Of a stretch of DNA of 42,611 nucleotides, positions 8,148-39,379 are shown piece by piece; within the stretch, counting starts at the first letter, position 1; each line of letters starts with the position of its first letter. Source of the stretch: Pseudomonadota bacterium (lineage in GTDB: Bacteria > Pseudomonadota > Gammaproteobacteria > Burkholderiales > SG8-39); the NCBI GenBank assembly GCA_021811085.1, contig JAJZPQ010000034.1, positions 1-42,611 of the forward strand, given 5' to 3'. The notes beneath the pieces were generated by a model that had not been told where the DNA came from, made no database searches, and saw nothing but the letters and a program-made list of their open reading frames with translations. The position numbers were made by a program, and so were the translations under genes.

Positions 8148-8333
8148 GCGCGGACGAGAAACCGTCCGCGCGGATCGCCGATTGCGTACGGATGAAAAGC
8201 ACATCCGCACGCAATCGGCGATCTCATATTTAAGCCACCCCAAACTGCCCTTGCTTTTATCCATAACCGCGTTTTCCGTACGGATACGGTTTTCATCCGT
8301 ACGGAAAACGCGGTTGGCGCGCGCAGCGCGCAA
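8148..8333. repeat. Four-hairpin intergenic element, copy 1
   Basis: Four adjacent hairpins. A: nine-base arms at 8148-8156 and 8163-8171 (GCGCGGACG / CGTCCGCGC). B: 22-base arms at 8173-8194 and 8202-8223 with one mismatch and a seven-base loop. Then about 43 unpaired bases. C: 19-base perfect arms at 8267-8285 and 8295-8313. D: GCGCGC arms at 8317-8322 and 8326-8331 with a GCA loop. Reading D-C on the minus strand gives the same plan as A-B on the plus strand: TTGCGCG, short GC hairpin, then a long hairpin with GGATG at its tip. The element is therefore a facing pair of like units. The 8116-8438 spacer holds no gene apart from this. Copies recur at 11059, 24125 and 39195. Confidence 0.88.
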
Positions 8334-8438
8334 ATCCGCTCGCGGCCAGGGGAGCAGGCTGGCGCGGGAGAGGGGCGCAATGCGGCGTCCGACGTGCATT
8401 TGGATGCGCTTGCACCAAGGCGCGTTTGTGTTGTATGA

Positions 8439-8456
8439 TTCAAACAACTGTTTGAA
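8439..8456. promoter_or_regulatory. PsrA-type operator before the TetR gene
   Basis: TTCAAACAACTGTTTGAA: eight-base perfect inverted arms around AC, 18 bases before the ATG of the TetR-family gene. It contains CAAAC-N4-GTTTG, the form of site described for Pseudomonas PsrA. The position so close to the start suggests that the regulator represses its own transcription and that of the genes behind it. Confidence 0.75.
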
Positions 8457-8474
8457 ACAGGTGTATGGTCCCGT

Positions 8475-9158
8475 ATGGCTGAAATCGATACCCGCCAACG
8501 CATTCTCGATGCCGCGGAATCCTTGTTTACCGAACACGGCTTCGATGCGACGACGCTGCGCCAGATCACCGGCGCGGCCGAAGTCAATCTCGCTGCGGTC
8601 AATTATCACTTCGGCTCCAAGGAAGAGTTGATCCGCGAGGTGTTTCGCCGGCGCCTGACCTGGCTCAATCAACAGCGGCTGCAGGAACTCGATCGCCTCG
8701 AAGCCGAGGCCGGTGGCGCGCCGCTCAAGCCCAGCCGCATCCTCGAAGTGTTTTTCGGCGTCGCGCTGAAAATGGCGGCCGACAGCAAAGGCGGCGGACG
8801 CACGTTCATGCGCCTGCTCGGGCGCACCTATACCAAGCCGTCTGAATTCGTGCGCGGCTTCCTCGCGGAGGAATACGCCGCGGTGCTCGCCCGCTTCAAG
8901 GCGGCGCTGATCAAGGCGCTGCCGGGCGTGCCGCAGGAAGAGATCCTGTGGCGCTTTCATTTCATGATGGGCGCCATGTCCTATGCCATGTCCGGCACCG
9001 ATGCCCTGCACATCGTTGCCAAACACGCGCTCGACGACGGCGACGCCGAAGCGCTGTATGCGCGTCTGATGAGTTTCATGCTCGGCGGCCTGCGCGCGCC
9101 TTTGCCTATGCTGCCGGCCGGATCGGCCAAGCGGCCGCGCATCAAAAAAGCCGCCTGA
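8475..9158 (+). CDS. psrA: PsrA-like TetR regulator of fatty-acid oxidation
   Basis: 227 residues. The N-terminal TetR helix-turn-helix is seen as 'TRQRILDAAESLFTEHGFDA' (about 6-25) and 'LRQITGAAEVNLAAVNYHFG' (about 29-48). The 'NLAAVNYHFGSKEELI' recognition region, 'TFMRLLGRTYTKPSEFVRGF' and 'WRFHFMMGAMSYAMSGTDAL' in the ligand domain match what I know of PsrA, the long-chain fatty-acid-responsive repressor of beta-oxidation genes. A matching palindrome lies just upstream, and the downstream genes encode an acyl-CoA dehydrogenase, a HAD/ECH fusion and a thiolase. The likely role is to repress this oxidation operon until a fatty acid or acyl-CoA binds. The basic C-terminal tail (KRPRIKKAA) is probably disordered. 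The start has only a weak ribosome site. Confidence 0.82.
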   Translation: MAEIDTRQRILDAAESLFTEHGFDATTLRQITGAAEVNLAAVNYHFGSKEELIREVFRRRLTWLNQQRLQELDRLEAEAGGAPLKPSRILEVFFGVALKMAADSKGGGRTFMRLLGRTYTKPSEFVRGFLAEEYAAVLARFKAALIKALPGVPQEEILWRFHFMMGAMSYAMSGTDALHIVAKHALDDGDAEALYARLMSFMLGGLRAPLPMLPAGSAKRPRIKKAA

Positions 9159-9229
9159 CGCAGCACGCAACAGACATCCACCCCCGCAGCAGCCACCAGG
9201 TCAATCCCAAAGGACCAAAGGAGAAAACC

Positions 9230-11020
9230 ATGGGTCAATACATCGCCCCCCTGCGCGACATGCAATTCGTGCTGCACGAGTTGCTGCAGGTCGAAGACGA
9301 ACTGAAACAGATCCCGAAATATGCCGAAGTGGATGCCGACACCATCAATCAGGTGCTGGAGGAGGGCGCAAAGTTCACTTCGAAAGTGCTGTTCCCGCTG
9401 AATCATACGGGCGACCGCGAGGGCTGCCACCTGGATAAGGCCACCCATGAGGTGACCACGCCCAAGGGCTTCAAGGAGGCATACCAGCAGTTCGTCGAGG
9501 CGGGCTGGCCTTCGCTGACCTGCGACCCGGAGTATGGCGGCCAGGGCTTGCCGGTGATCCTGTACAACCCGTTCTCGGAAATGCTGAATTCCTGCAATCA
9601 GGCCTGGTACATGTACCCCGGCCTGTCGCACGGCGCCTACGAATGCCTGCATGAGCACGGCACGCCGGAGCAGAAAAGCTTGTACCTGCCGAAGCTGGTT
9701 TCGGGGGAATGGACCGGCACCATGTGCCTGACCGAGGCGCATTGCGGCACCGACCTGGGCCTGCTGCGCTCCAAGGCGGAACCGCAGGCCGACGGCTCCT
9801 ACAAGATCACGGGCAGCAAGATATTCATTTCCGCGGGCGAGCACGACATGGCCGCCAACATCGTGCATCTGGTGCTTGCGCGCCTGCCGGATGCGCCGGC
9901 GGGCACCCGCGGCATTTCGCTGTTCATCGTACCGAAGTTCATACCCGCGGCCGACGGCGGCATCGGCGCGCGCAATGGGATCACTTGCGGCGCGATCGAG
10001 GAGAAAATGGGCATCCACGGCAACTCCACCTGCCAGTTGAACCTGGATGCGGCCACCGGCTGGCTCGTGGGGCAGCCGAACAAGGGCCTGAACGCGATGT
10101 TCGTGATGATGAACGCCGCGCGCCTGGGCGTAGGCATGCAGTCGCTGGGCCAGACCGAGGTCGCCTACCAGAACGCGCTGGTGTATGCGAAAGAGCGCGT
10201 GCAGATGCGCAGCCTCTCCGGGGTCAAGGCGCCGAATCTGCCGGCCGATCCGATCATCGTGCATCCGGATGTGCGCCGCATGCTGCTGACCGCGAAGGCT
10301 TATGCCGAAGGCGGGCGTGCGTTCACGTCTTTCATCGCGCTGCAGATCGACCGCGAGCTGCATCACCCGGACGAAGCGGTGCGCAAGGATGCAGCCGACT
10401 TGGTGACGCTGCTCACGCCCGTGGTCAAGGCCTTCATCACCGACAACGGCTGGATCGCCACTTCGGAGGCGATGCAGGTCTACGGCGGCCACGGCTACAT
10501 CGCCGAGTGGGGCATGGAGCAATACGTGCGCGATGCGCGCATCAACATGATCTACGAAGGCACCAACACCATACAGTCGCTCGACCTGCTCGGGCGCAAG
10601 GTGCTCATGGACAACGGCGCCAAATTGAAGAAATTCGGCGCCATGGTGCAGGCTTTCGTCGAAGAGAACGGCACCGACGAGGCGATGAGCGAATTCATCA
10701 CCCCCCTGGGCGATCTCGGCGGCAAGCTGACCAAGCTCAGCATGGAAATCGGCATGAAGGCGTTCGCGAATCAGGACGAAGTCGGCGCCGCCGCCGTGCC
10801 CTACCTGCGCGTGGTCGGCCACCTGGTCTATGCCTATTTCTTCGCGCGCATGGCCAAGATCGCGCTGGCGAAGCTCGATTCCGGCGACGGCTTCTACAAG
10901 GCCAAACTCGCGACCGCCCGCTTTTATTATGCCCGGCTGCTGCCGGAAACCGCCATGCTGATCCGCCAGGCCCGTTCGGGTGCGGCGAATCTGCTCGATC
11001 TCGAAGCCGAACTGTTTTAA
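9230..11020 (+). CDS. Long-form acyl-CoA dehydrogenase with C-terminal extension
   Basis: 596 residues from an ATG preceded by AAAGGAGAAAACC. It is a member of the large acyl-CoA dehydrogenases of about 600 residues that carry an extra C-terminal helical domain (PF12806) after the catalytic domain. Visible: 'CLTEAHCGTDLGLLRSKA' (FAD and substrate loop), 'YKITGSKIFISAGEHDM', 'MQVYGGHGYIAEWGMEQYVR' and 'MIYEGTNTIQSLDLLGRK' with the catalytic Glu at about 443. The remaining ~150 residues form the added domain. It catalyses the FAD-dependent alpha,beta-dehydrogenation that starts each beta-oxidation round and passes electrons to ETF. It lies 71 bases behind the PsrA-like gene on the same strand and is separated from the HAD/ECH gene by copy 2 of the hairpin element. 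Confidence 0.92.
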   Translation: MGQYIAPLRDMQFVLHELLQVEDELKQIPKYAEVDADTINQVLEEGAKFTSKVLFPLNHTGDREGCHLDKATHEVTTPKGFKEAYQQFVEAGWPSLTCDPEYGGQGLPVILYNPFSEMLNSCNQAWYMYPGLSHGAYECLHEHGTPEQKSLYLPKLVSGEWTGTMCLTEAHCGTDLGLLRSKAEPQADGSYKITGSKIFISAGEHDMAANIVHLVLARLPDAPAGTRGISLFIVPKFIPAADGGIGARNGITCGAIEEKMGIHGNSTCQLNLDAATGWLVGQPNKGLNAMFVMMNAARLGVGMQSLGQTEVAYQNALVYAKERVQMRSLSGVKAPNLPADPIIVHPDVRRMLLTAKAYAEGGRAFTSFIALQIDRELHHPDEAVRKDAADLVTLLTPVVKAFITDNGWIATSEAMQVYGGHGYIAEWGMEQYVRDARINMIYEGTNTIQSLDLLGRKVLMDNGAKLKKFGAMVQAFVEENGTDEAMSEFITPLGDLGGKLTKLSMEIGMKAFANQDEVGAAAVPYLRVVGHLVYAYFFARMAKIALAKLDSGDGFYKAKLATARFYYARLLPETAMLIRQARSGAANLLDLEAELF

Positions 11021-11058
11021 GAGCCCATTTCCAGATGTCGCGTGGGGTTTTATCCAAA

Positions 11059-11259
11059 ATCGTCGCTTGCGCACGGACCGATTTTGGTCCGTGCGCAAGC
11101 GACGATCCGCGCGGACGGGCCGCCGTCCGCGCAAGTTCGGGCGTCACAGTTCGACGCATCTTCTTTTGGCTGTCTGCGTCGACAAGCCGCCATTGCGCGC
11201 TGCGCGCGCCAACCGTGTTTTCCGCGCGGATGAAAGGCGCATCCGCACAGAAAACACGG
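11059..11259. repeat. Four-hairpin intergenic element, copy 2 (each unit inverted)
   Basis: Contains the same four hairpins in the order B, A, D, C. B: perfect 21-base arms at 11059-11079 and 11086-11106. A: ten-base arms at 11109-11118 and 11123-11132. About 60 bases of spacer follow. D: GCGCGC arms at 11195-11200 and 11204-11209. C: 20-base arms at 11213-11232 and 11240-11259 with two mismatches. Relative to copies 1, 3 and 4 each two-hairpin unit is inverted in place, so short hairpins lie inside and long ones outside. The 11021-11350 spacer between the two beta-oxidation genes contains no gene besides this. Confidence 0.85.
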
Positions 11260-11350
11260 TTATGGTTAACACCACGCGCTGCGCGGATTAAGTTGCCATG
11301 GATAGCAATGTGTCCTCTCATAGCGTAAGCACTAACACAGAAGGAAAGGT

Positions 11351-13738
11351 ATGAGCAATTTCATCGTCAGGAAAGTCGCCGTGCTCGGCGCGGGCGTGAT
11401 GGGCGCGCAGATCGCGGCCCATTGCGTCAACGCGCGCGTGCCCGTGGTGCTGTTCGACCTGCCGGCCAAGGAAGGTTCCAAGGACGGCATCGTGCTGCGT
11501 GCCATTGAAAACCTGAAAAAGCTGAGTCCCGCGCCGCTGGGCAACAAGGACGAGGCGGCCTACATCGAGGTGGGCAACTACGACGAGCATCTCGAAATGC
11601 TCAAAGGCTGCGACCTCATCATCGAGGCCATCGCCGAGCGCATGGACTGGAAGCACGACCTGTACAAGAAAGTCGCGCCGTTCATCGCGCCGAATGCGAT
11701 ATTCGCCTCCAACACCTCCGGCCTGTCGATCACCGCCTTGTCCGAAGGCTTCGACACGGGGCTCAAAGCGCGCTTTTGCGGCGTGCATTTCTTCAACCCG
11801 CCGCGCTACATGCATCTGGTGGAGCTGATTCCGACTGCCGCGACTTCGCCTGCGATCCTGGACCAGCTCGAAGGCTTTCTCACCACCACGCTGGGCAAAG
11901 GCGTGGTGCGTGCGAAAGACACGCCCAACTTCATCGCCAACCGCGTCGGCATTTTCGGCATGCTCGCGACCATGCACGAGGCGGAAAAATTCGGCCTCTC
12001 CTGCGATGTGGTGGATGACCTCACCGGCGCCAAGCTCGGGCGCGCGAAGTCCGGCACGTTCCGCACCGCGGACGTGGTCGGCCTGGACACCATGGGCCAT
12101 GTGATCAAGACCATGCAGGACACGCTAGTCGGCGATCCGTTTTTCGCGGTGTACAAGACACCGGAAGTCCTGACCAAGCTGGTGCAGGCGGGCGCGCTGG
12201 GACAGAAGACCGGCGCCGGCTTTTACAAGAAAGTCGGCAAGGAGATCCAGCGCCTGGACTTCGCCAAGGGCGAGTACGTGGCCGGCGGCGGCAAGGCGGA
12301 CGATCTCATCGCGCGCATCCTGAAAGAAAAAGACCCGGCCAAGCGCATGAAAACCCTGAGCGAATCGAAAAACCCGCAGGCGCAATTCCTGTGGGCGATA
12401 TTCCGCGATGTGTTTCATTACATCGCGGTGCACCTCGAGTCGATTGCGGACAACGCGCGCGACGTCGATTTCGCCATGCGCTGGGGCTTCGGCCAGAGCA
12501 TCGGCCCGTTCGAAACCTGGCAGAGCGCCGGCTGGCAGCAGGTTGCGGGCTGGATCAAGGAAGACATAGACGCAGGCAAGGCTTTGTGCAGCGCGCCGCT
12601 GCCGGCCTGGGTGTTCGACGGCCGCACTGGCGTGCATGCGCCCGAGGGCTCCTGGTCCGCCGCGCGCAAGACGAATGTGCCGCGCTCGACGCTGCCGGTG
12701 TATCAGCGGCAGGTGTTCCGCGCTCCGGTGCTGGGGGATGCCGCCGTCGATGGCGCCAAGGCGGGTACGACGGTATTCGAGGACGACGCGGTGCGCATCT
12801 GGCACCAAGGCGATGATGTGCTGATCCTGTCGTCGAAGACGAAGATGCACGTGATCGGGCCGGGCATGATCACCGGTCTCACCAGGGCACTGGCCGAAGC
12901 GGAGGCGAACTACAAGGGCCTGGTGCTGTGGAACGCCGATGCCGCGGCGGGCGGTGCGTTTTCCGCCGGTGCCGACTTGCAGGCGATGCTGCCGCTGTTC
13001 ATGTCGGGCGGGGTCAAGGCGATCGAGCCGGCCGTGGCCCAGCTGCAGCAGGCGCATCTGGCACTGAAATACGCCAACGTGCCCGTGGTGGCCGCGGTTG
13101 CGGGCCTGGCGTTGGGCGGCGGCTGCGAACTGATGCTGCACGCGTCCAAGCGCGTCGCGTCGATCGAATCTTATATCGGCCTGGTCGAAGTCGGCGTCGG
13201 CCTGATTCCTGCGGGCGGCGGCTTGAAGGAAGCGGCAGTGCGCGCGGCAACCGATGCCAAGGGCAACGACCTGCTGCAGTTCCTGAAGAATTACTTCATG
13301 AACGCGGCGACGGCGAACGTCTCCAAGTCGGCGCTGGAGGCGAAGAAAATTGGTTACCTGGCCGCCGACGACCTCATCGTGTTCAATCCTTACGAGTTGC
13401 TGCATGTGGCCAAAGTCGAGGCGCGGGCGCTGTTCGATGCGGGCTACCGGCCGCCGCTGAAAGCGCTGGTGCCGGTAACCGGGCGCTACGGCATGGCGAC
13501 CATCATGGCGCAGCTGGTGAACATGCGCGACGGCGGCTTCATTTCCGCGCACGACTACAAGCTCGGTTCGATGATCGCCGAGATTGTGTGCGGCGGCGAA
13601 GTGGAAGCCAATAGCCTGGTGAACGAGCAGTGGTTGCTCGATCTGGAGCGCAAGGCCTTCATGGAGCTGCTCAACCATCCCAAGACCCAGGAACGCATCA
13701 TGGGCATGATGCAGACCGGCAAACCGGTGCGCAACTAA
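11351..13738 (+). CDS. 3-hydroxyacyl-CoA dehydrogenase / enoyl-CoA hydratase fusion
   Basis: 795 residues, with AAGGAAAGG before the ATG. The order is dehydrogenase first, hydratase second, as in FadN-type proteins and opposite to E. coli FadB/FadJ. The NAD-binding Rossmann domain begins 'KVAVLGAGVMGAQIAAHCVN' and contains 'ASNTSGLSITALSEG', 'GVHFFNPPRYMHLVELIPTA' (catalytic His) and 'DTPNFIANRVG'. The C-terminal crotonase domain has 'AGLALGGGCELMLHASKRVA' and 'YIGLVEVGVGLIPAGGGLKE', keeping both catalytic glutamates. It would hydrate 2-enoyl-CoA and oxidise the 3-hydroxy product to 3-ketoacyl-CoA, which the thiolase encoded 22 bases downstream cleaves. Transcription from the upstream acyl-CoA dehydrogenase would have to read through hairpin copy 2. 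Confidence 0.93.
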   Translation: MSNFIVRKVAVLGAGVMGAQIAAHCVNARVPVVLFDLPAKEGSKDGIVLRAIENLKKLSPAPLGNKDEAAYIEVGNYDEHLEMLKGCDLIIEAIAERMDWKHDLYKKVAPFIAPNAIFASNTSGLSITALSEGFDTGLKARFCGVHFFNPPRYMHLVELIPTAATSPAILDQLEGFLTTTLGKGVVRAKDTPNFIANRVGIFGMLATMHEAEKFGLSCDVVDDLTGAKLGRAKSGTFRTADVVGLDTMGHVIKTMQDTLVGDPFFAVYKTPEVLTKLVQAGALGQKTGAGFYKKVGKEIQRLDFAKGEYVAGGGKADDLIARILKEKDPAKRMKTLSESKNPQAQFLWAIFRDVFHYIAVHLESIADNARDVDFAMRWGFGQSIGPFETWQSAGWQQVAGWIKEDIDAGKALCSAPLPAWVFDGRTGVHAPEGSWSAARKTNVPRSTLPVYQRQVFRAPVLGDAAVDGAKAGTTVFEDDAVRIWHQGDDVLILSSKTKMHVIGPGMITGLTRALAEAEANYKGLVLWNADAAAGGAFSAGADLQAMLPLFMSGGVKAIEPAVAQLQQAHLALKYANVPVVAAVAGLALGGGCELMLHASKRVASIESYIGLVEVGVGLIPAGGGLKEAAVRAATDAKGNDLLQFLKNYFMNAATANVSKSALEAKKIGYLAADDLIVFNPYELLHVAKVEARALFDAGYRPPLKALVPVTGRYGMATIMAQLVNMRDGGFISAHDYKLGSMIAEIVCGGEVEANSLVNEQWLLDLERKAFMELLNHPKTQERIMGMMQTGKPVRN

Positions 13739-13760
13739 CGCGGCCCCCAGGAGATATCAA

Positions 13761-14957
<1,197 letters not shown>

Positions 14958-15030
14958 GGTCCCGAATCTGCTGCAGCATGAGCTTCTCCGGGCGGGCGGC
15001 GTTGCGCGCGGCCGGCGCAACTGGACAGTA

Positions 15031-15047
15031 TTAGCTAAATTAGCTAA
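15031..15047. promoter_or_regulatory. Tandem palindrome operator of the Phd-MNT/HEPN module
   Basis: Two copies of the palindrome TTAGCTAA at 15031-15038 and 15040-15047, one base apart and ten bases before the ATG of the Phd-fused antitoxin. Phd/YefM-type antitoxins repress their own genes by binding short palindromes at this place, so the site supports DNA binding by the N-terminal Phd domain. Confidence 0.7.
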
Positions 15048-15056
15048 ACTGTGACA

Positions 15057-16006: not shown

Positions 16007-16028
16007 GGTGGGTCGATGGCGTCTGCGC

Positions 16029-16100
16029 ATTCGCGCGGCCACGGTCACTCACGCGATGCGGCGTAAAAATCTCAAGTACGGCGTGATGACGATCTGCTAA
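16029..16100 (+). pseudogene. Remnant of a thiolase 3' end (first)
   Basis: In one frame these bases encode IRAATVTH followed by 'AMRRKNLKYGVMTIC' and a stop, matching the intact thiolase (IRSATTIH, 'ALRRKNLKYGMVTMC', then fourteen more residues). Many codons differ synonymously from the neighbouring thiolase gene, so this is either an old duplicate or comes from a different thiolase gene. It follows the HEPN toxin stop directly and precedes the ParD start by 32 bases. It shares the 16-base GCGATGCGGCGTAAAA (16053-16068) exactly with the second remnant. Confidence 0.85.
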
Positions 16101-16132
16101 GATAAATATGCCGCTCATTTCTGGAGCCTGAC

Positions 16133-23566: not shown

Positions 23567-24101
23567 CCTTGTTCACGCTCAAGTCCACCTGCACTCGGTC
23601 TTCGCTGTCGCCCAGCCAGACCTGTTCGTCCTGGATCGTGCAATTCAGGCGCATATTGCGTTGCGCGAGCTTCGCCAGTGCCTGGCTGGCGGCCGCCGGC
23701 ACCGAAATCACCGTCAGATTTTTCATCCGCGCCAGCTCGCCGCCGACCTGATTCCACCAGACGTTGGCGGCGTAACCGCCGTAGCTGTAGACGATGACTT
23801 GGCGCGCGCGTCCGCAGGCCCGGCGTATGCGTCTTTCATCGGGCTGGCCGACTTCGATCCAGAGTTCGATCGCGCCGGTCAGGTCCTTGCGCCACAGATC
23901 GGGCTCGTCGTCTGCGCTCAAGCCCTTGCCGAACGCCAAGGCTTCGTCGGCATTCAGCGCGAAGGCGAGCACGCGCAGCATCATGCGCTCATCGGTCTCC
24001 GACGGATGGCGCGCGATCGTGAGTGCGTGATCTTGGTAATAATTGCGGTCCATGTCCGCGATTTGCAGTTCGGCTTTGAAAATGGTTGCCTTCAGGGCCA
24101 T
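23550..24101 (-). CDS. yaeQ: YaeQ family protein
   Basis: 183 residues. 'MALKATIFKAELQIADMDRN' then 'YYQDHALTIARHPSETDERM' and 'LWRKDLTGAIELWIEVGQPD' are the defining YaeQ segments, and the mixed alpha/beta fold is related to PD-(D/E)xK nucleases. The conserved acidic residues fall in 'SETDERMMLR' and 'IELWIEVG', and the basic stretch 'RACGRARQVIVYSYG' follows. Family members are conserved in proteobacteria; E. coli YaeQ was linked to suppression of RfaH loss, and no catalytic role is settled. Longer upstream frames run into hairpin element copy 3 and are rejected. Confidence 0.9.
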   Translation of the reverse strand: MALKATIFKAELQIADMDRNYYQDHALTIARHPSETDERMMLRVLAFALNADEALAFGKGLSADDEPDLWRKDLTGAIELWIEVGQPDERRIRRACGRARQVIVYSYGGYAANVWWNQVGGELARMKNLTVISVPAAASQALAKLAQRNMRLNCTIQDEQVWLGDSEDRVQVDLSVNKATSSR

Positions 24102-24124
24102 AGAGTCTTTTCGGTCGCAATTTT

Positions 24125-24303
24125 GCGCGGACGAAAACCCGTCCGCGCGGATCGTCGATTGTGCACGGATGAAAAAGACATCCGTGCACAATCGACGATC
24201 TTGTAAGAAAAACAAGTCGCCGTTGTTATTAACCGTAACCGCGTTTTCTGTACGGATGAAAAGCATCCGTACAGAAAACGCGGTTGGCGCGCGTAGCGCG
24301 CAA
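24125..24303. repeat. Four-hairpin intergenic element, copy 3
   Basis: The cleanest copy. A: GCGCGGACG at 24125-24133 pairs with 24140-24148. B: perfect 22-base arms at 24150-24171 and 24179-24200, seven-base loop. Spacer of 38 bases. C: perfect 20-base arms at 24239-24258 and 24264-24283 around AAAAG. D: GCGCGC at 24287-24292 and 24296-24301, loop GTA. Same order as copies 1 and 4. It lies directly upstream of yaeQ and downstream of the parvulin gene, both on the minus strand. The B stem differs from copy 1 at paired positions on both arms, so pairing is kept. Confidence 0.9.
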
Positions 24304-24352
24304 GTCCGCTGGCGGCATGCAACAACATTCAAGCCGCCGTATACAAAACGAC

Positions 24353-24374
24353 AACGGGGGCTTGCGCCCCCGTT
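24353..24374 (-). terminator. Intrinsic terminator of the parvulin gene
   Basis: Nine-base GC-rich stem AACGGGGGC (24353-24361) / GCCCCCGTT (24366-24374) with a four-base loop, 25 bases beyond the parvulin stop on the minus strand and followed there by GTCGTTTTG. It probably ends the msrB-yciB-bolA-parvulin unit. Confidence 0.7.
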
Positions 24375-24398
24375 ATTCCGTCTCGATCTACAGCCGGG

Positions 24399-25199
24399 TT
24401 ATTCGACTTTGGCCTTCGCGCGCAGGTCGTTCACCGCTTTTTCGAATGCCGTTTCCTGCAGGCGCTGTTCCAGCTTGGGTTTCACCTGCTCGAACTCGGG
24501 GAATTTCGCCGGACGCACGTCCTCGAGCTGGATCACATGCCAGCCGAACTGCGACTGCACCGGTGTCTCGGTGTACTGTCCTTTTTGCAATTTGACCATC
24601 GCATCCGAGAACGGCTTGACGAAACCGCCGGGGAGATTCCAGTCGAGATCGCCGCCGTGGTCTTTGGAGCCGGGATCCTTGGACAGTTTCGCGAGATCCT
24701 CGAATTTCTCGCCTTTTTTCAGCTTCGCGATGATGTCTTTTGCCTCGCTTTCGTTATCCACCAGGATGTGGCGCGCCTTGTATTCCTTGTCGCCCGCCTG
24801 CGCCTTGATTTTTTCGAACTCCGCCTTCAGCGCGTCGTCCGTGACCGGATGATGCTTGAGGAAATCGGCGCGGTAGGCCTGCACCAGGATGTTGGTGCGC
24901 GCGAGCTCGATCTGGGCCACGGTATCGCCGGCCTTGTCCAGGTGCTTGTTGCGGGCTTCCTGCGCAATGGCTTCGAGCGTGATCAGGCGATCGCGAATCG
25001 CAGCGCGCAGCTCAGGCGAGTCCTTCTGCCCCTGCGCCTCCTGGGCGTGCACGATGGCATCCACGCGGCTCTTGGGGATCGCGACGCCGTTGACGGTCGC
25101 GACCTTGGCGCTTGCGGCGCCGGCTTGCGCCAGGGCGAGGCCCGGTGCCGATAGCGCGATGGCCAAGGCCAAGGTCAGGCGGGGGAGTGTGGGCTGCAT
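24399..25199 (-). CDS. Periplasmic parvulin-type peptidyl-prolyl isomerase
   Basis: 266 residues from the ATG at 25199, which has GAGGAAC upstream. A signal peptide is clear: MQPTLPRLTLALAIALSAPG, then LALAQA with a likely cut near residue 25. The N-terminal SurA/PrsA-like helical part (about 30-130, with 'VNGVAIPKSRVDAIVHAQEA') is followed by a rotamase domain at about 140-235: 'EYKARHILVDNESEAKDIIA', 'FEDLAKLSKDPGSKDHGGDL' and 'VQSQFGWHVIQLEDVR'. It assists folding of exported proteins by cis-trans isomerisation of prolyl bonds. It is the last gene of a conserved unit with bolA, yciB and msrB, 16 bases after bolA. Confidence 0.92.
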   Translation of the reverse strand: MQPTLPRLTLALAIALSAPGLALAQAGAASAKVATVNGVAIPKSRVDAIVHAQEAQGQKDSPELRAAIRDRLITLEAIAQEARNKHLDKAGDTVAQIELARTNILVQAYRADFLKHHPVTDDALKAEFEKIKAQAGDKEYKARHILVDNESEAKDIIAKLKKGEKFEDLAKLSKDPGSKDHGGDLDWNLPGGFVKPFSDAMVKLQKGQYTETPVQSQFGWHVIQLEDVRPAKFPEFEQVKPKLEQRLQETAFEKAVNDLRAKAKVE

Positions 25200-29952: not shown

Positions 29953-29971
29953 GCGCCGGCCGCGCAGGGCT

Positions 29972-31399: not shown

Positions 31400-31409
31400 G
31401 TCTGCGCTC

Positions 31410-33089: not shown

Positions 33090-33104
33090 GGTTTCTCCTT
33101 GGGA

Positions 33105-33992: not shown

Positions 33993-34006
33993 TGTCGATC
34001 CTGCCG

Positions 34007-34058
34007 AATCTGCACTATAGTGCTTGCAAAACAAGACGGGCGCATTATAATGCAGATT
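34007..34058. promoter_or_regulatory. Two palindromic operators and promoter between boxR and the transporter gene
   Basis: AATCTGCACTATAGTGC at 34007-34023 is repeated inverted, with two changes, as GCATTATAATGCAGATT at 34042-34058. Each holds a perfect 12-base palindrome (GCACTATAGTGC at 34012-34023, GCATTATAATGC at 34042-34053), 30 bases centre to centre, three helical turns. The TGCA-N6-TGC spacing recalls sites described for BoxR/BzdR. The second palindrome contains TATAAT (34046-34051) with TTGCAA (34024-34029) 16 bases upstream, a good rightward promoter that a bound repressor would block. Confidence 0.75.
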
Positions 34059-34118
34059 CGCGAATTGGCAAGCCGCCCGGGGTAAAATCAAAAACCAATT
34101 GAGAGAGGAGGGTTTTTC

Positions 34119-35255
34119 ATGAATAAATCTTTGCGCAATCTGCTGGCGCTGGTCCTGGCCGGTGCGGCCACGTCGGCCTTGGCCGACATTACCGTGGGCG
34201 TGGACCTGTCCACCACCGGCCCGGCCGCATCCCTGGGCATTCCGGAAAAGAATACGGTGGCGATCCTGCCGACGGCCATCGCCGGGCAGAAAGTGAAATA
34301 TATAGTGCTCGATGACGCCACCGATCCGACCGCGGCGTCCAAGAACGCGCGCAAGCTGGTGTCCGAAGACAAGGTCGATGTCATCATCGGCGCCAGCACC
34401 ACGCCGACCTCGACCGCCGTGCTTGAAGTCGCGGCCGAAACCAAGACGCCGCAGATCTCGCTGGCGCCGTTCGCGCCCGCAGCCGACAAGGCCGCGTGGG
34501 TGTTCCAGATGCCGCAGGATTTCGGCATTATGGCCAACGCCATCGTCAGCCACATGGCGGCTCACGGCGTGAAGACCGTCGGTTTCATCGGCTACACCGA
34601 CGGCTACGGCGAACTCTGGCTGCGCGTCATGAACAGCTTTGCCGCTGCCAAGGGCATCAAGATGGTCGCGGTCGAGCGCTATAACCGCACCGATACCAGC
34701 GTGACCGGGCAGATACTCAAGATCATGAGCACGAATCCGGATGCGGTGCTGGTCGTCGGGTCGGGCACGCCGGCGGTGCTGCCGCAGGCGGCGCTGGCCG
34801 AGCGCGGCTACAAGGGTCAGATCTACCAGACTCACGGCGTGGCGAACAAGGATTTCCTGCGCGTGGGCGGAAAGGACGTCGAGGGTGCGGTGCTGCCGGT
34901 GGGGCCGATCCTGGTGGCGGAGCAGTTGCCCAACGACAACGCCAGCAAAAAAGTCGCGCTCAATTACATCAAGACCTACGAGGCGAAATACGGCGCCGAC
35001 AGCCGCAATTCCTTCGGCGCGCACGCCTGGGATGCCGGCCTGTTGCTGCAGCATGCGATTCCGGTGGCCCTGAAAAAAGCCAAGCCCGGCACGGCGGAGT
35101 TCCGCGCCGCACTGCGCGAGGCCATGGAAAACGTCAAGGAAATGCCCGCCGACCATGGCGTCTTCAGCTTTTCCGCCCAGGATCACAAGGGTCTGGACAG
35201 CCGCGCGGTGGTGCTGGTGCGCGTCGAGAAAGGCACCTGGAAGCTGATGCACTAA
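34119..35255 (+). CDS. ABC transporter solute-binding protein, probably for aromatic acids
   Basis: 378 residues with GAGGAGGG before the ATG. A Sec signal peptide is clear (MNKSLRNLLALVLAGAATSA, cut near LA/D at residue 23). The mature protein is a type I periplasmic binding protein of the branched-chain amino acid group: 'DITVGVDLSTTGPAASLGIP' at the start, 'SKNARKLVSEDKVDVIIGAS', 'GFIGYTDGYGELWLRVMNSF', and 'FGAHAWDAGLLLQHAIPVAL' near the end. Homologues next to benzoate genes bind benzoate or hydroxybenzoates, which is the expected ligand by context. It is the first gene of the rightward unit, just behind the boxR operators, and four bases ahead of the flavodoxin gene. It differs clearly from the second binding protein at 37914. 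Confidence 0.9.
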   Translation: MNKSLRNLLALVLAGAATSALADITVGVDLSTTGPAASLGIPEKNTVAILPTAIAGQKVKYIVLDDATDPTAASKNARKLVSEDKVDVIIGASTTPTSTAVLEVAAETKTPQISLAPFAPAADKAAWVFQMPQDFGIMANAIVSHMAAHGVKTVGFIGYTDGYGELWLRVMNSFAAAKGIKMVAVERYNRTDTSVTGQILKIMSTNPDAVLVVGSGTPAVLPQAALAERGYKGQIYQTHGVANKDFLRVGGKDVEGAVLPVGPILVAEQLPNDNASKKVALNYIKTYEAKYGADSRNSFGAHAWDAGLLLQHAIPVALKKAKPGTAEFRAALREAMENVKEMPADHGVFSFSAQDHKGLDSRAVVLVRVEKGTWKLMH

Positions 35256-35258
35256 GCC

Positions 35259-35735
35259 ATGGCGCTGGACCTGACCATACTGGTCGGCACCATGACCAGC
35301 ACGGCCGAGCTGGTGGCGCAGGCAGTGCAACTCGCGGCGGAAGACGACGACGTGCGCATAAGCATCAAGCCCATGGACGGGCTCGATGCGAGCGTGTTCG
35401 CCGGCGGCGGGTTGTATCTGATCTGCACCTCCACCTATGGTCAGGGCGATGTGCCCGACAACGCCAAGCCGCTGTATGCGTCGCTGCAAAGCGCGCGACC
35501 CGATCTCAGCAGTGTGGCATACGGCGTGATCGCGCTGGGCGATCGCACCTATGCGGAAACCTTCTGTTTCGGTGGCAAGCGTTTCGACGAGCTGCTCGCC
35601 GAATTGGGCGCGCGCCGTCTGGGCCAGGTGTTCCGCCACGACGCCAGCGCCGGCACCATGCCGGAGGAGCTGGCGGCGGAATGGGCGCTAAGCTGGATGG
35701 AAAGCGTCAGGGCAGGCCGCGCGCTCGCGGCCTGA
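35259..35735 (+). CDS. MioC-like flavodoxin
   Basis: 158 residues, a single flavodoxin domain. FMN-phosphate loop: 'ILVGTMTSTAELVAQAVQLA' (residues 6-25). Second FMN loop: 'LICTSTYGQGDVPDNAKPLY', the STYGxGxxPDNA motif of MioC and of the FMN domains of diflavin reductases. Third loop: 'YGVIALGDRTYAETFCFGGK'. It starts three bases after the stop of the binding-protein gene, so translation is probably coupled. An electron-transfer protein here is notable because the box oxygenase needs a reductase and boxA is not in the window; whether this flavodoxin supplies BoxB is inference. There is no signal peptide. Confidence 0.87.
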   Translation: MALDLTILVGTMTSTAELVAQAVQLAAEDDDVRISIKPMDGLDASVFAGGGLYLICTSTYGQGDVPDNAKPLYASLQSARPDLSSVAYGVIALGDRTYAETFCFGGKRFDELLAELGARRLGQVFRHDASAGTMPEELAAEWALSWMESVRAGRALAA

Positions 35736-35771
35736 GCCGCGACGGCGCAGACAGCGACAAGGATCAGCGCC

Positions 35772-36242
35772 ATGACCACGCCAATGAAGTTGCAGCAGCT
35801 GGTCGCGCCGGTCGCGCGCTTTGCGCAGGGGTGTGCGCTGGACGCGGTGCTGCAGGCCGATCTCAATTCGAACTTCCCTCCCGCGGGCGAAACCTTTCAG
35901 CAGATTCGCGCGACCTGTCACGCCGGCATCGCCGCGGGCTGGCTGTGCGGGCAGGGTGATGCCAAGCGGCGCTACGGCCGCATCTTCGAGCCGGGCGCGG
36001 CGACGCATGGATTCAGCGTGGATGTGGTCGATATCACCGACCTCGTCGGCAATCATCACCGCCACCCCACAGGTGAAATCGACATGATCATGCCGGTCAC
36101 GCCGCAGGCCAGATTCGACGACCGGGGCGCAGGCTGGCTGGTGTACGCACCGGGCTCGGGACATCGCCCCACCGTGAGCGGCGGACGCGCGCTGATCCTG
36201 TATCTGCTGCCCGAGGGCCGGATCGAATGGACCCAAACCTGA
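35772..36242 (+). CDS. DUF4863 protein (4-hydroxylaminobenzoate-lyase-like)
   Basis: 156 residues; AAGGA lies about ten bases before the ATG. The family is recognised from the cupin-like core 'VDVVDITDLVGNHHRHPTGE' followed by 'IDMIMPVTPQARFDDRGAGW' and 'LVYAPGSGHRPTVSGGRALI'. The His-rich HHRHPTGE with the following Glu resembles a metal site. The characterised relative I know of is PnbB, 4-hydroxylaminobenzoate lyase of nitrobenzoate degradation. DUF4863 genes also accompany box clusters, where the role is unknown. No signal peptide is present. It sits between flavodoxin and benzoate-CoA ligase genes in the same direction, so it probably acts on benzoate or a benzoyl-CoA intermediate, but the reaction cannot be stated. 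Confidence 0.8.
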   Translation: MTTPMKLQQLVAPVARFAQGCALDAVLQADLNSNFPPAGETFQQIRATCHAGIAAGWLCGQGDAKRRYGRIFEPGAATHGFSVDVVDITDLVGNHHRHPTGEIDMIMPVTPQARFDDRGAGWLVYAPGSGHRPTVSGGRALILYLLPEGRIEWTQT

Positions 36243-36277
36243 AACATCCCTAACGCAATACGCAAGAGGAGAGAGGC

Positions 36278-37879
36278 ATGCCTGGACTATCGTCCGCCGA
36301 CCACAGGGTCAGCCCGCCCAGAGTGACTATACCGCGCGACTACAATGCCGCGCACGACCTGATCGAACGCAACCTCAAGGCAGGGCGCGCGGGCAAGACC
36401 GCGTTCATCGACGATGCCGTCAGCATCAGCTACGGCGAGCTGGCCGAACGCGTGAACCGCGCCGCCAACGCGCTCAAGGGCCTGGGTCTGGGGCTGGAAG
36501 ATCGCATCATGGTCGCGCACCTGGACACCGTGGATTTCCCCAGCGTGTTTCTCGGCGCGATCAAGGCCGGCATCATTCCGATCGCCGGCAATACCCTGCT
36601 GACCACGGCCGATTACGAATTCATGCTCAACGACAGCCGCGCCAAAGCGCTGGTGGTGTCGGAGCCGTTGCTGCCTACATTCGCGCCCTTGTTCGGCAAG
36701 CTGCCCTTCCTCCAGCATGTGATCGTATCGGGCAAGGATGCGCACGGCCATCTGTCGCTGGCGCGGCTGATGCAGGGTGCCGGCACAGCCTGCGAACCGG
36801 CTCAGACTACCTGCGACGACGCCTGCTTCTGGCTCTACTCCTCGGGTTCGACCGGCATGCCCAAGGGCACCGTGCATATGCACTCGCACCTGATCCAGAC
36901 GGCCGAGCTCTATGCGCGGCCGGTGCTGGGAATACGCGAGGACGACGTGGTGTTCTCGGCCGCGAAGCTGTTCTTCGCCTACGGCCTGGGCAATTCGCTG
37001 ACGTTTCCGATGTCCGTCGGCGCCACCGCGATACTCATGGCGGAGCGCCCCACGCCGGCTGCCGTTTTTCAGCGCCTGCAGCAGAAGCGGCCGACTATTT
37101 TCTACGGCGTGCCGACGCTGTATGCGGCGCTGCTCGCGAGCCCCGAGCTGCCCAAGCGCGAAGCGCTGAATCTGCGCGTGTGCACTTCGGCGGGCGAAGC
37201 CTTGCCCGCCGATATCGGCGAGCGCTGGACCAAGCACTTCGGCGTGGAAATCCTCGACGGGCTGGGCTCGACCGAGATGCTGCACATCTTCGTGTCGAAC
37301 CGGCCGGGCGAGGTGCGCTACGGTTCCACCGGCAAGGCCGTGCCCGGCTACGCCCTGCGCGTGGTCGACGATGCGGGCAATCCGGTGCAGCCCGGTGAAA
37401 TCGGCGAACTGCAGATCAACGGCCCGACCAGTGCCGCCTGCTACTGGAACAACCGCGCCAAGAGCCGCGCGACGTTCATGGGCGACTGGACCCGCAGCGG
37501 CGACAAGTACACCGTGGACGAGGCCGGCTACTATACCTATTCGGGGCGCACCGACGACATGCTCAAGGTGGGCGGCATCTACGTCTCGCCGTTCGAAGTC
37601 GAGGGCGCGCTGCTGACGCATCCGGACGTGCTCGAAGTGGCGGTGATCGGACAGCCGGACGAGGACCAGCTGATCAAGCCGAAAGCCTATGTCGTGACCA
37701 AGCAGGGCGTCACCGGCAACGCCGCGCTGGCCGAACAGCTGCAGCAGCATGTGAAGTCCAAGCTCGCGCCTTACAAATACCCGCGCTGGGTCGAGTTCGC
37801 AAGCGAGCTGCCGAAAACGGCGACCGGGAAGATTCAGCGCTTTAAACTGCGCGCCAAGTCGCAGAGCGATGTAAAGTAG
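36278..37879 (+). CDS. bclA: Benzoate-CoA ligase
   Basis: 533 residues with AAGAGGAGAGAGG before the ATG. It is an ANL-superfamily adenylating enzyme. The N-terminal 'VTIPRDYNAAHDLIERNLKA' and the substrate region 'AAKLFFAYGLGNSLTFPMSV' are typical of benzoate-CoA ligases. P-loop motif: 'LYSSGSTGMPKGTVHMHSHL' (about 186-205). Later motifs: 'DGLGSTEMLHIFVSN', 'YTYSGRTDDMLKVGGIYVSP', and the C-terminal catalytic lysine in 'LPKTATGKIQRFKLR' (about Lys518). It makes benzoyl-CoA from benzoate, ATP and CoA, providing both the pathway substrate and the effector of BoxR. It is cytosolic and the fourth gene of the rightward unit. Confidence 0.95.
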   Translation: MPGLSSADHRVSPPRVTIPRDYNAAHDLIERNLKAGRAGKTAFIDDAVSISYGELAERVNRAANALKGLGLGLEDRIMVAHLDTVDFPSVFLGAIKAGIIPIAGNTLLTTADYEFMLNDSRAKALVVSEPLLPTFAPLFGKLPFLQHVIVSGKDAHGHLSLARLMQGAGTACEPAQTTCDDACFWLYSSGSTGMPKGTVHMHSHLIQTAELYARPVLGIREDDVVFSAAKLFFAYGLGNSLTFPMSVGATAILMAERPTPAAVFQRLQQKRPTIFYGVPTLYAALLASPELPKREALNLRVCTSAGEALPADIGERWTKHFGVEILDGLGSTEMLHIFVSNRPGEVRYGSTGKAVPGYALRVVDDAGNPVQPGEIGELQINGPTSAACYWNNRAKSRATFMGDWTRSGDKYTVDEAGYYTYSGRTDDMLKVGGIYVSPFEVEGALLTHPDVLEVAVIGQPDEDQLIKPKAYVVTKQGVTGNAALAEQLQQHVKSKLAPYKYPRWVEFASELPKTATGKIQRFKLRAKSQSDVK

Positions 37880-37913
37880 TCAGGTAGTTAACGTCCAACC
37901 GAGGAGGATCGAT

Positions 37914-39104
37914 ATGAGTAAGAACCAAACTTTTGGCCGGCGCGAGTTTCTCAAGACCGCTGCCGTTGCGGCGGGCGTCGCCGGCCTGCCGCGTTTCGCG
38001 TTTGCGCAGGGCGCGAAAATCAGGATCGGCCTGATGCTGCCCTATACCGGCACCTACGCCCAGCTCGGCGTGGCGATCACCAACGGCTTCAAGCTGGCGG
38101 TGGCGGAATCCGGCGGCAAGCTCGGCGGGCGCGAACTGGAATATTTCACCGTCGACGACGAATCCGATCCGTCCAAGGCGACCGACAATGCGAACAAGCT
38201 CGTGACCCGCGACAAGGTCGATGTGCTGATCGGCACGGTGCACTCCGGCGTGGAAATGGGCATCGTCAAGATCGCGCGCGAATCCGGCGTGCTGCACATC
38301 AATCCGAACGCGGGCGCGGATGCGGCCACGGGCGCGTTGTGCGCGCCGAATATTTTCCGCACTTCGTTCACCAACTGGCAGCCCGCCTATCCGATGGGCA
38401 AGGTGCTCGCGGACCGCGGCATCAAGAAGGTCGTCACGCTCACCTGGAATTACGGCGCCGGCACGGAATCCATCGGCGGCTTCAAGGAAGGTTTCACCAA
38501 GGCCGGCGGCACCGTGGTCAAGGAGTTGCTGCTGCCGTTCCCGAGCGTGGAATTCCAGCCGCTGCTGACCGAAATCGCCTCGATCAAGCCCGACGCCGTG
38601 TTTGTGTTCTTCGCCGGCGGCGGTGCGGCCAAGTTCCTCAAGGATTGGCAGGCGGCCGGCCTGAAAGGCAAGATCGGGCTGTATGCCACCGGCTTCCTCA
38701 CCGACGGCATCCTCGAATCGGTGGGCGACGCGGCCGAGGGCATAGAGACCACGCTGCATTACGGCGACGGCATCGAGACGCCGAAGAACAAGACCTTCCG
38801 CCTCAATTACGCCAAGACGTTCAAGCTGCAGCCCGATGTCTATGCGGTGCAAGGCTACGACGCCGGCTTGCTGCTGGCTGCAGGGCTGAATGCGGTCAAG
38901 GGTGACGTGAGCAAGAAGAAGGAGATGATCGCGGCGATGGAGAAGGTCAAGATCGACAGCCCGCGCGGCGCATGGACCATGTCCAAGGCGCACAACCCGA
39001 TTCAGGACATTTACCTGCGCAAGGTGGTGGGCAAGGAAAACCGGGTGATGGGCGTGGCGCACAAGGCGCTGGCCGATCCGGCGCGCGGCTGCAAGATGGC
39101 CTGA
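37914..39104 (+). CDS. ABC transporter solute-binding protein with Tat signal
   Basis: 396 residues, with GAGGAGG eight bases before the ATG. The N-terminus 'FGRREFLKTAAVAAGVAGLP' is a twin-arginine export signal (RREFLK), with a probable cut near 'FAFAQG' at about 31. The mature part is a type I periplasmic binding protein: 'KIRIGLMLPYTGTYAQLGVA', 'DNANKLVTRDKVDVLIGTVH', 'PNIFRTSFTNWQPAYPMGKV' and 'VYAVQGYDAGLLLAAGLNAV'. The aromatic-acid branch of this family is the likely home, since it lies between bclA and the livHMGF-type genes. Export by Tat, unlike the Sec-exported first binding protein, means that the two mature by different routes. A terminator-like hairpin follows at 39136. Confidence 0.92.
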   Translation: MSKNQTFGRREFLKTAAVAAGVAGLPRFAFAQGAKIRIGLMLPYTGTYAQLGVAITNGFKLAVAESGGKLGGRELEYFTVDDESDPSKATDNANKLVTRDKVDVLIGTVHSGVEMGIVKIARESGVLHINPNAGADAATGALCAPNIFRTSFTNWQPAYPMGKVLADRGIKKVVTLTWNYGAGTESIGGFKEGFTKAGGTVVKELLLPFPSVEFQPLLTEIASIKPDAVFVFFAGGGAAKFLKDWQAAGLKGKIGLYATGFLTDGILESVGDAAEGIETTLHYGDGIETPKNKTFRLNYAKTFKLQPDVYAVQGYDAGLLLAAGLNAVKGDVSKKKEMIAAMEKVKIDSPRGAWTMSKAHNPIQDIYLRKVVGKENRVMGVAHKALADPARGCKMA

Positions 39105-39135
39105 AGCAATCTCCGCACTGTCCCCATGCGTAGTT

Positions 39136-39159
39136 AAAGGCCGGCGCAAGCCGGCCTTT
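39136..39159 (+). terminator. Hairpin after the second binding-protein gene
   Basis: A perfect ten-base stem AAAGGCCGGC / GCCGGCCTTT with a GCAA tetraloop, 32 bases after the stop. The T run after the stem is short (CTTTG), so termination may be partial, which would let some transcripts continue into the permease genes. Confidence 0.65.
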
Positions 39160-39194
39160 GATTGAGGATACGTCGAGCTGTAGAGACAGAACTT

Positions 39195-39379
39195 GCGCGG
39201 ACGGCGGCCCGTCCGCGCGGATCGCCGCTTGCGTACGGACGAGAAGCCGTCAGCACGCAATCGGCGATCTTGGATAAAAGCAAGCCCAATCCGATGTTGC
39301 TTCTATCAATAGCCGTGTTTTCCGGACGGATGTGTTTTTCATCCGTCCGGAAAACATGGTTGGCGCGCGCAGCGCGCAG
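39195..39379. repeat. Four-hairpin intergenic element, copy 4 (partly decayed)
   Basis: Order A, B, spacer, C, D as in copies 1 and 3. A: ten-base arms at 39195-39204 and 39209-39218. B occupies 39220-39269, but its arms now differ at several positions: the left resembles copy 2 (CGCTTGCG), the right copy 1 (CGCAATCG). C at 39313-39359 has one mismatch in the stem. D is at 39363-39377. It fills most of the 39105-39463 gap between the binding-protein and permease genes; apart from the terminator-like hairpin nothing else is seen there. Confidence 0.85.

What the first reader, a model, noticed from the sequence alone, without database searches (positions are those of the whole stretch)
8148..39379. 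A four-copy, four-hairpin intergenic element with compensatory stem changes
Four copies (8148-8333, 11059-11259, 24125-24303, 39195-39379) share one plan: a short GC hairpin entered by TTGCGCG and next to it a 19-22 bp hairpin with GGATG at the tip, present twice per copy as two facing units. The long stems vary between copies, mostly with matching changes on both arms: in hairpin B, GCC pairs with GGC in copy 1 but GTC with GAC in copies 2 and 3, and GATT/AATC in copies 1 and 3 becomes GCTT/AAGC in copy 2; in hairpin C, CCGCG/CGCGG becomes CCGTG/CACGG. Such covariation points to selection for, or copying of, the folded form. All copies are intergenic. I know of no described family with this pair-of-pairs form; REP/BIME elements are the nearest analogy.
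Basis: partly seen in the sequence, partly recalled or inferred. Interest (0 to 1): 0.78.

Follow-up and report, generated by a model that had tools for sequence, protein, structure and literature searches.

The report
Mobile four-hairpin intergenic repeat family
Short stretches that fold into paired hairpins are scattered between genes of an unnamed bacterium and its relatives; they look like a new family of small jumping DNA, built like known bacterial repeats but with very long hairpins and, in one recent subfamily, transposon-like ends.

Summary
The four copies belong to a family with about 77 loci in a 4.48-Mb draft genome. Stem covariation is strong: 19 of 30 and 17 of 29 pairs have two-sided changes; 0 of 500 shuffles reach any measure. 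Correction: copy 2 does not share the plan; its units are swapped, short hairpins inside.

The unit is a long hairpin plus a short GC hairpin. Units form head-to-head dimers (40), tail-to-tail dimers (8), longer arrays (2) and singles. None of the 77 overlaps a predicted gene; of 68 scored, 42 lie between co-directional, 25 convergent, 1 divergent genes. The family is in 14 of 14 genomes of the genus, 10 of 84 others of the family, 0 of 24 from other families.

It is mobile: orthologous sites are empty in relatives, one copy sits inside another, and a recent subfamily (about 270 bp) has terminal inverted repeats and, at two copies, exact short duplications. A commoner subfamily has other terminal repeats. 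No mobilising enzyme was found; tyrosine transposases were beside units at 1 of 15 loci examined in the genus. A group II intron has entered hairpin C at two or more loci.

Best reading: a MITE-like, REP-dimer-like non-autonomous element tolerated at gene ends. New variant of a known kind.

The parts
8146..8333 (+). Copy 1, AB-CD (head-to-head) form: A 8148-8156/8163-8171, B 8173-8194/8202-8223, C 8265-8285/8295-8315, D 8317-8331
   Evidence: left flank resembles the type I frame by eye; orthologous site without the element in G004, G005, G010 and AB-CD-AB in G003
11057..11261 (-). Copy 2, CD-AB (tail-to-tail) form: B' 11059-11079/11086-11106, A' about 11108-11134, D' 11193-11210, C' 11211-11232/11240-11261; short hairpins inside, opposite arrangement to copies 1, 3 and 4
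   Evidence: orthologous site has only 25 bp between the aligned gene ends in G008 and G010, and an AB-CD form in G005
24123..24303 (+). Copy 3, AB-CD form: A 24125-24133/24140-24148, B 24150-24171/24179-24200, C 24237-24258/24264-24285, D 24287-24301
24304..24343 (+). Right flank of copy 3 with a possible type I right terminal repeat (24327-24343, 3 mismatches to the pattern)
   Evidence: that scan gave 13 matches against 9 control matches, so the match is weak alone; it sits at the distance seen in other copies
39193..39379 (+). Copy 4, AB-CD form: A 39195-39203/39210-39218, B 39220-39269 (imperfect), C 39311-39361, D 39363-39377

Best explanation
A family of non-autonomous mobile intergenic elements, MITE-like in how some copies are framed and REP-dimer-like in build. 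The unit (about 80-90 nt) is an AT-rich lead, a 21-23 bp near-perfect hairpin and a short GC hairpin ending mostly in CGCGCAA. Two diverged units, AB and CD, face each other. The main form is the head-to-head dimer AB-CD; tail-to-tail CD-AB and arrays also occur. Shown: multiplication, sites empty in relatives, nesting, strong stem covariation, location away from promoters. Shown for one recent subfamily: about 270 bp, terminal inverted repeats, and at one site a 5-bp direct repeat of which relatives without the element have one copy or a variant. Inferred: a DDE-type transposase supplied in trans moves copies through the terminal repeats; insertions survive where a hairpin in the transcript is harmless or stabilises the upstream mRNA, that is at 3' ends; stems stay paired because broken hairpins are lost or are corrected arm to arm.
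For: Copy number: 69 and 65 pattern places against 1 and 0 controls, 79 clusters of which 2 are chance, 74 R1 matches. Sites without the element, or differently filled, in relatives. Nested copy at C87:10444-10904. Subfamily II: six copies, four of them 95-97% identical, with GAAACGGTTGCAAAATGAG and AGTTCGTTTCAAAATGAG ends. CTAAG flanks the C130:130090 copy on both sides; at that gene end eight relatives without the element have one CTTAG (G005), CTAG (G001, G003, G010, G011, G012, G013) or CTGA (G007). TAAG flanks the nested copy on both sides. Type I ends: both recognised in 13 of 84 AB-CD copies against 1 of 84 with reversed patterns. 0 of 77 loci overlap a predicted gene; 42/25/1 co-directional/convergent/divergent. 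Covariation.
Against: No transposase with these ends was found; the one inverted pair of ends 1.5 kb apart that I followed encloses no transposase by its reading frames. Duplications are exact in only 2 of 6 subfamily II copies, 3 of 4 bases in 2, not recognisable in 2. In 12 of 39 (left) and 15 of 40 (right) AB-CD copies no frame was recognised, with templates I wrote from the same copies. The right type I end alone is hardly above control (27 against 21 of 84), and the own-genome scan for type I ends gave 13 against 9. The tail-to-tail form is not explained by simple transposition through terminal repeats. Terminal repeats also flank some tyrosine transposases (PMC3733652 section 16), so they alone do not prove a DDE enzyme.
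Confidence: 0.55

Rival explanations
1. A REP/REPIN- or TIRtron-type element moved as single-stranded DNA by a tyrosine (Y1/HUH, RAYT- or TIRYT-like) transposase that recognises the hairpins themselves; the outer repeats were picked up secondarily.
For: Inverted dimers, both dimer orientations, clusters, extragenic 3'-end location and compensatory changes are REP/REPIN traits (PMC3733652, PMC3116915 passages). Double palindromic repeats flanking tyrosine transposases are described (PMC3733652 section 16). Y1 transposase genes are in 11 of the 14 genus genomes at E <= 1e-5. The same core occurs in two different terminal frames.
Against: Of 21 Y1 matches in the genus 15 were available as loci and examined, with flanks of up to 1.5 kb; 1 has units beside it (L125, on one side only), and 1 of 33 counting other genera and families. 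Type I and II ends flank none of the 33 as a pair (single type II hits in 2). G003 (61 R1 matches, 89% complete) and G009 (47, 59% complete) show no Y1 match, though both are incomplete. No unpaired GTAG or CGTC tag. At least one copy has a direct target duplication.
Confidence: 0.25
2. Chiefly an RNA-level element kept by selection: in transcripts the hairpins protect 3' ends, are cut by RNase III or attenuate read-through; mobility is a minor part.
For: 3'-end bias. Very stable RNA folds on both strands. Read from long to short hairpin, G-T cells exceed A-C cells in both unit types (C: 34 against 15; B read on its other strand: 47 against 14), as RNA wobble pairs would predict.
Against: More than half of that excess (30 of 52 cells) comes from two column pairs: without B 44/66 and C 25/47 it is 27:14 and 24:15, and rows are related. 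No single transcript carries the favoured strand of both units. In copy 3 no terminator-like site is found at the long hairpins. Sites are empty in relatives, one between genes only 25 bp apart there, so at the sites compared the copies are not fixed regulators. The 3' bias also follows from purifying selection against insertion in promoters.
Confidence: 0.15
3. Near-perfect stems reflect DNA-level arm-to-arm correction (template switching or gene conversion within the palindrome), with no selection on the fold. This concerns how stems are kept and is compatible with any of the mobility readings.
For: B and C stems are 95.5% and 98.3% paired while flanks and spacers diverge; such correction would also give two-sided changes.
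Against: One-sided states exist and are uneven by strand, which plain correction does not predict. Not separable with these data.
Confidence: 0.2

Closest known systems
REP / BIME / REPIN elements (GTAG and CGTC super-families)
   Same: Short palindromic extragenic units, mostly inverted dimers in head-head and tail-tail forms, clusters, location between co-directional and convergent genes (PMC3733652 abstract, passages); compensatory changes (PMC3116915 passages). Some REP dimers lie inside longer palindromic frames (PMC3733652 section 7).
   Different: Two hairpins per unit, long stems of 21-23 bp against 5-13 bp, no unpaired GTAG/CGTC tag, no units beside the Y1 gene in 14 of 15 genus loci examined, terminal repeats with a target duplication in a recent subfamily.
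TIR repeats of TIRtrons (TIR-associated tyrosine transposases), including double palindromic TIRs
   Same: Double palindromes as repeat unit; TIR families occur as single, dimeric or grouped copies; hundreds of double structures in P. putida and P. fluorescens (PMC3733652 section 16).
   Different: Those flank tyrosine transposase genes; here 1 of 15 genus Y1 loci examined has units, on one side. I had no sequences of those TIRs to compare.
Bacterial MITEs such as Correia elements (CREE/NEMIS) and RU-1 (ERIC; this synonym is recalled)
   Same: Small, intergenic, MITE-like, many copies; Correia elements have inverted repeats and can bind RNase III (PMC2649163 and PMC2759123, abstracts as shown in the listings).
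   Different: Modular two-hairpin units in two dimer orientations and arrays; the same core inside two different terminal frames; no autonomous partner identified. Sequence relation was not tested beyond Rfam.
REP sequences as landing pads for IS elements
   Same: Here another mobile element, a group II intron, has inserted in hairpin C at two or more loci; ISs with REP targets are described (PMC1525189 abstract and passages).
   Different: The invader is a group II intron (RF02005 match in L101), not an IS.

Membership tests
REP/REPIN (GTAG or CGTC tagged) | Unpaired GTAG or CGTC (TGTC, CCTC) tag at one end of a 5-13 bp or 8-9 bp stem | tested here: not met
   63 AB and 61 CD units: stems of 9 (A), 21 (B), 21-23 (C) and 6 (D) pairs; CGTC occurs only inside the paired A stem; read from the alignments. 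Feature taken from PMC3733652.
REP/REPIN (GTAG or CGTC tagged) | RAYT gene flanked by units (GTAG REPs; CGTC REPs are reported to lack a dedicated transposase) | tested here: not met
   1 of 15 Y1 loci examined in the genus (15 of its 21 matches), 1 of 33 in all (33 of 52 matches listed) has units nearby (L125).
REP/REPIN (GTAG or CGTC tagged) | Inverted dimers, extragenic, mainly at gene 3' ends | tested here: met
   40 AB-CD, 8 CD-AB, 2 longer arrays; 42 co-directional, 25 convergent, 1 divergent of 68 scored, 9 of 77 at contig edges, 2 chance clusters dropped first
MITE | Short, no transposase gene, terminal inverted repeats | tested here: met
   Subfamily II: ends aligned in six copies, about 270 bp at C130:134230. 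Type I: both ends in 13 of 84 copies at up to 3 mismatches, control 1 of 84; some of the 13 look spurious by eye.
MITE | Direct target-site duplication | tested here: inconclusive
   CTAAG at C130:130090 with element-free sites in eight relatives and TAAG at the nested copy are exact; two others match 3 of 4 bases; two not recognisable; the second C130 site was not resolved in relatives; type I compatible with TA only.
MITE | Autonomous partner with the same ends | tested here: inconclusive
   None found in the own genome by terminal-repeat scans; of 81 type II-like matches (control 29) 30 became loci and one pair was followed to its genes. The draft assembly breaks at repeats.
TIRtron double palindromic TIRs | Units flank a tyrosine transposase gene | tested here: not met
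   Same test as for RAYT: 1 of 15 genus loci, units on one side only.
Any Rfam RNA family | Score at or above the gathering threshold | tested here: not met
   0 matches in the window; in 24050-24400 16 matches, all below their thresholds, best mir-4520 with 43 bits against a threshold of 90

The most novel reading that the evidence does not exclude
The two-hairpin unit is itself the mobile or replicating entity: an unknown nuclease acts on it, possibly through a circular form whose junction is the nearly fixed-length D-A spacer and which can open in the other spacer, giving the circularly permuted CD-AB copies flanked by half-spacers. The same core has then been taken up by two unrelated transposon-end frames and serves as a homing site for a group II intron.
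Probability: 0.2. Interest if true: 0.72.

Novelty: new variant of a known kind. Interest (0 to 1): 0.42.

Why it matters
It is a high-copy, genus-centred palindrome family that combines REP-like dimers with MITE-like ends and recent movement. It bears on a question left open in PMC3733652: how palindromic repeats without a dedicated tyrosine transposase are moved. The permuted CD-AB form and the two terminal frames around one core are directly testable in complete genomes.

Tried and rejected
RAYT partner: Y1 family searched in the own genome and 35 others, 33 loci scanned with both models; one neighbour; their flanks were also scanned for the terminal repeats. An enzyme beside copies: all-against-all comparison of 263 predicted flanking proteins; the 15 largest shared clusters, judged by eye from one sequence each and from the Pfam names of window genes, look metabolic, with no transposase. 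Autonomous transposon: terminal-repeat scans; one inverted pair 1.5 kb apart followed, its best frame reads like a solute-binding protein by eye. Phage or plasmid origin: no match. Intrinsic terminators: in copy 3 one weak 5-pair site inside the element, none at the long hairpins. Structure prediction was not used: nothing protein-coding is known to belong to the element.

Weak points: gene calls come from my own codon-usage gene finder trained on 21 window ORFs. The shuffle counts are not probabilities, because copies are related. Searches scored at most 78 and 47 candidates per genome, so high counts are lower bounds. Classes use templates taken from the same copies. Some relatives (G001, G006, G012) lay on the other strand and were not resolved by that script; one search suggests that some of them have an element at the copy 2 site. 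AB-CD copies between co-directional genes point against transcription in 17 and with it in 7, not pursued. On checking, the section on TIRtrons made me lower the main reading from 0.6 to 0.55, raise the tyrosine-transposase rival from 0.2 to 0.25 and lower interest from 0.45 to 0.42.
Full report
What is there. The window is contig C23 of an unnamed 4.48-Mb draft genome in 148 contigs. The four copies described are present, and seven of their eight long stems are the seven top-ranked inverted repeats of the window. Copy 3 folds to -114.6 kcal/mol as RNA (shuffles -54.8, z -13.9) and -80.1 as DNA (z -15.4).

Genome family. Two patterns from the A-B and C-D junctions, up to 3 mismatches, give 69 and 65 places against 1 and 0 for reversed controls. 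Grouped with some BLAST hits they make 79 clusters; two (L071, L103) lack the hairpins and are taken as chance, leaving 77. At up to 3 mismatches there are 40 AB-CD dimers, 8 CD-AB dimers, one AB-CD-AB, one AB-CD-AB-CD and 31 singles. The singles include the two chance matches, copies cut by contig ends or by an intron, and dimers whose second unit the pattern misses. A covariance model of AB finds 74 matches at E <= 1e-6 in the own genome. The CD model matches six AB units on the opposite strand over its full length with 60-68 bits, so the two units are likely diverged versions of one unit in opposite orientation.

Covariation. Of 68 AB units extracted, 63 were aligned (dropped: L037, L071, L103, the first unit of L079, L091); of 64 CD units, 61 (dropped: L079 first, L099, L101); two more were cut by contig ends. 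In AB, 19 of 30 pairs have at least one two-sided change (118 cells, 95.8% of cells paired); in CD, 17 of 29 (109 cells, 98.7% paired). None of 500 shuffles reached any of the five measures, and sliding the partner columns removes most of the signal: at best 9 and 7 pairs with two-sided changes. B has 16 such pairs, C 17, A 3, D none. One-sided states are uneven by strand: B has 47 A-C against 14 G-T cells, C has 34 G-T against 15 A-C. Read from long to short hairpin, both units therefore favour G-T. One column pair in each stem gives 30 of the 52 excess cells (without them 27:14 and 24:15) and rows are related, so this is a hint only.

Anatomy beyond the hairpins. In CD-AB junctions the C-D to A-B pattern distance is nearly constant (98-100 in 9 of 10, 89 in one), and these copies are flanked by what look like the two halves of the AB-CD spacer (TTGCTTTTATCCATAAC on the left, TCTTGTATAAAACCCC on the right). 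They look like circular permutations of the same module, as expected from arrays or from a circular form. Outside AB-CD copies I see terminal frames. Type I has a left end like TATACGCGGCGACTCAAATCGCG and a right end that reads, reverse complemented, TATACGGCGTCTCAAAT. With 11-base cores at up to 3 mismatches, 84 deduplicated copies from own and related loci show the left end in 30 (reversed control 5), the right in 27 (control 21) and both in 13 (control 1); about six of the 13 are convincing by eye. Type II has ends GAAACGGTTGCAAAATGAG and AGTTCGTTTCAAAATGAG. By my templates the left flank of 40 AB-CD copies was type I in 18, II in 6, S (array type) in 3, none in 12 and cut in 1; the right flank was I in 7, I/S in 10, II in 7, S in 1 and none in 15.

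Mobility. Subfamily II has six aligned copies (a seventh, shortened one lies at C111); four are 95-97% identical, the other two 82-88%, and the C130:134230 copy is 270 bp between its ends. One copy lies inside the spacer of another element at C87. At C130:130090 the copy is flanked by CTAAG on both sides. In eight relatives (G001, G003, G005, G007, G010, G011, G012, G013) the same gene end is followed by no element; it carries a single CTAG in six, CTTAG in G005 and CTGA in G007. The nested copy has TAAG on both sides. Two other copies match 3 of 4 bases and two cannot be read; the other C130 site was not resolved in relatives. At the copy 1 site the element is absent in G004, G005 and G010, and G003 has AB-CD-AB. 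At the copy 2 site G008 and G010 have 25 bp between the aligned gene ends, G004 93 bp without the element, G005 an AB-CD form (G001, G006 and G012 were not resolved by that script). So copies come and go, also between co-directional genes that are 25 bp apart in relatives.

Distribution. R1 matches in all 14 genomes of the genus searched: 11 with 47-78 matches (at most 78 candidates scored) and 3 with 2-4. In the family, 24 of 98 genomes match, that is 10 of 84 outside the genus, in 5 other genera, one with 47 matches at the scoring limit. None of 24 genomes from 24 other families of the order match. An exact pattern scan of the one-genome-per-species collection gave 34 stretches in 8 assemblies, labelled Betaproteobacteria (4), Burkholderiales (3) or Proteobacteria (1) and mostly MAG; one name says groundwater. 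The own genome may be left out there, so that the window is betaproteobacterial is inference. No match in viral contigs (exact pattern), plasmids or phages. The models and patterns come from one genome, so distant versions could be missed.

Location. With a simple codon-usage gene finder, none of 77 loci overlaps a predicted gene by more than 60 bases. Of 68 with genes on both sides, 42 lie between co-directional, 25 between convergent and 1 between divergent genes; 9 are at contig edges. In the window, convergent and divergent neighbours are about equally common (6 and 7 of 43 pairs), so 25 against 1 is a strong bias away from promoters (my arithmetic: about 4e-7 if both were equally likely). 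CD-AB copies lie between convergent genes in 6 of 8, AB-CD copies in 12 of 37.

Mobilising enzyme. Y1 transposases occur in the own genome (4 matches) and in 11 of the 14 genus genomes (21 matches). Fifteen of the 21 could be examined, with flanks of up to 1.5 kb cut by contig ends in some; one (L125) has a CD and an AB unit on one side. G003 and G009, rich in copies, show no Y1 match, but both are incomplete; G013, 99% complete, has 2 copies and no Y1, while G004 and G007 have 2 and 4 copies and Y1 genes. So no correlation is seen. No transposase-like protein recurs beside copies, as far as judged by eye. Terminal-repeat scans revealed no autonomous partner. A second, smaller palindromic family in this genome has ends resembling type II, which suggests that one transposase moves both; that is inference.

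Comparison with known kinds. Build, dimer types and location fit REP/BIME/REPIN elements; the tag, the stem length and the RAYT association do not (PMC3733652 abstract, passages, sections 7 and 16; PMC3116915 passages). The two-hairpin unit recalls the double palindromic TIRs of tyrosine transposases in Pseudomonas (PMC3733652 section 16), whose sequences I did not have. Terminal repeats, size and duplication fit MITEs, such as Correia elements, for which RNase III binding is reported (PMC2649163, abstract in listing). A 4-bp YTAR-like target is recalled for the IS5 and IS701 families, from memory and no call. Paper searches gave no described version; most subscription papers are not in that library. 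I file it as a new variant of a known kind.

Noticed in passing
L101:1-124 and L099 (C124 start, C115 end), L065 and L068 ends (C76, C86 ends): A group II intron (RF02005 match in L101) interrupts the C hairpin near its tip. Two contigs show the same intron 5' sequence and two show another shared sequence at the matching point, taken by eye as the 3' end; so at least two loci. Contigs break there.
   Followed up: partly
L284, L285, L294-L298, L267, L275 (own genome); also the G004 copy-2 site in L154: A second small palindromic repeat with ends like CCGTTGCAAAATGAA...CATATTGCAACAG and GGGGAGTATGAGGGGATATCCCCTCAT cores; its ends resemble the subfamily II ends.
   Followed up: partly
L087, L094, L117, L118: A variant in which the D hairpin carries an insert of about 24-50 nt (CCCCCAGGAGGACTTGCTTCGCGG or longer); similar GGGGACTTCCTTCGGGGCGC stretches sit in hairpin tips of the second repeat family, as if a tiny palindrome inserts into palindromes.
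   Followed up: no
L125 about 1022-1188 (G011:C409): The only Y1-transposase locus examined that has element units nearby: an IS200-like open frame of 167 codons with a CD and an AB unit, tails facing and a short palindromic spacer, about 250 bp before it.
   Followed up: partly
L121 (G027:C39) and G083: High-scoring copies in other genera of the family, patchy between species (3-4 matches in G027, at least 47 in G083), which could mean horizontal spread.
   Followed up: no
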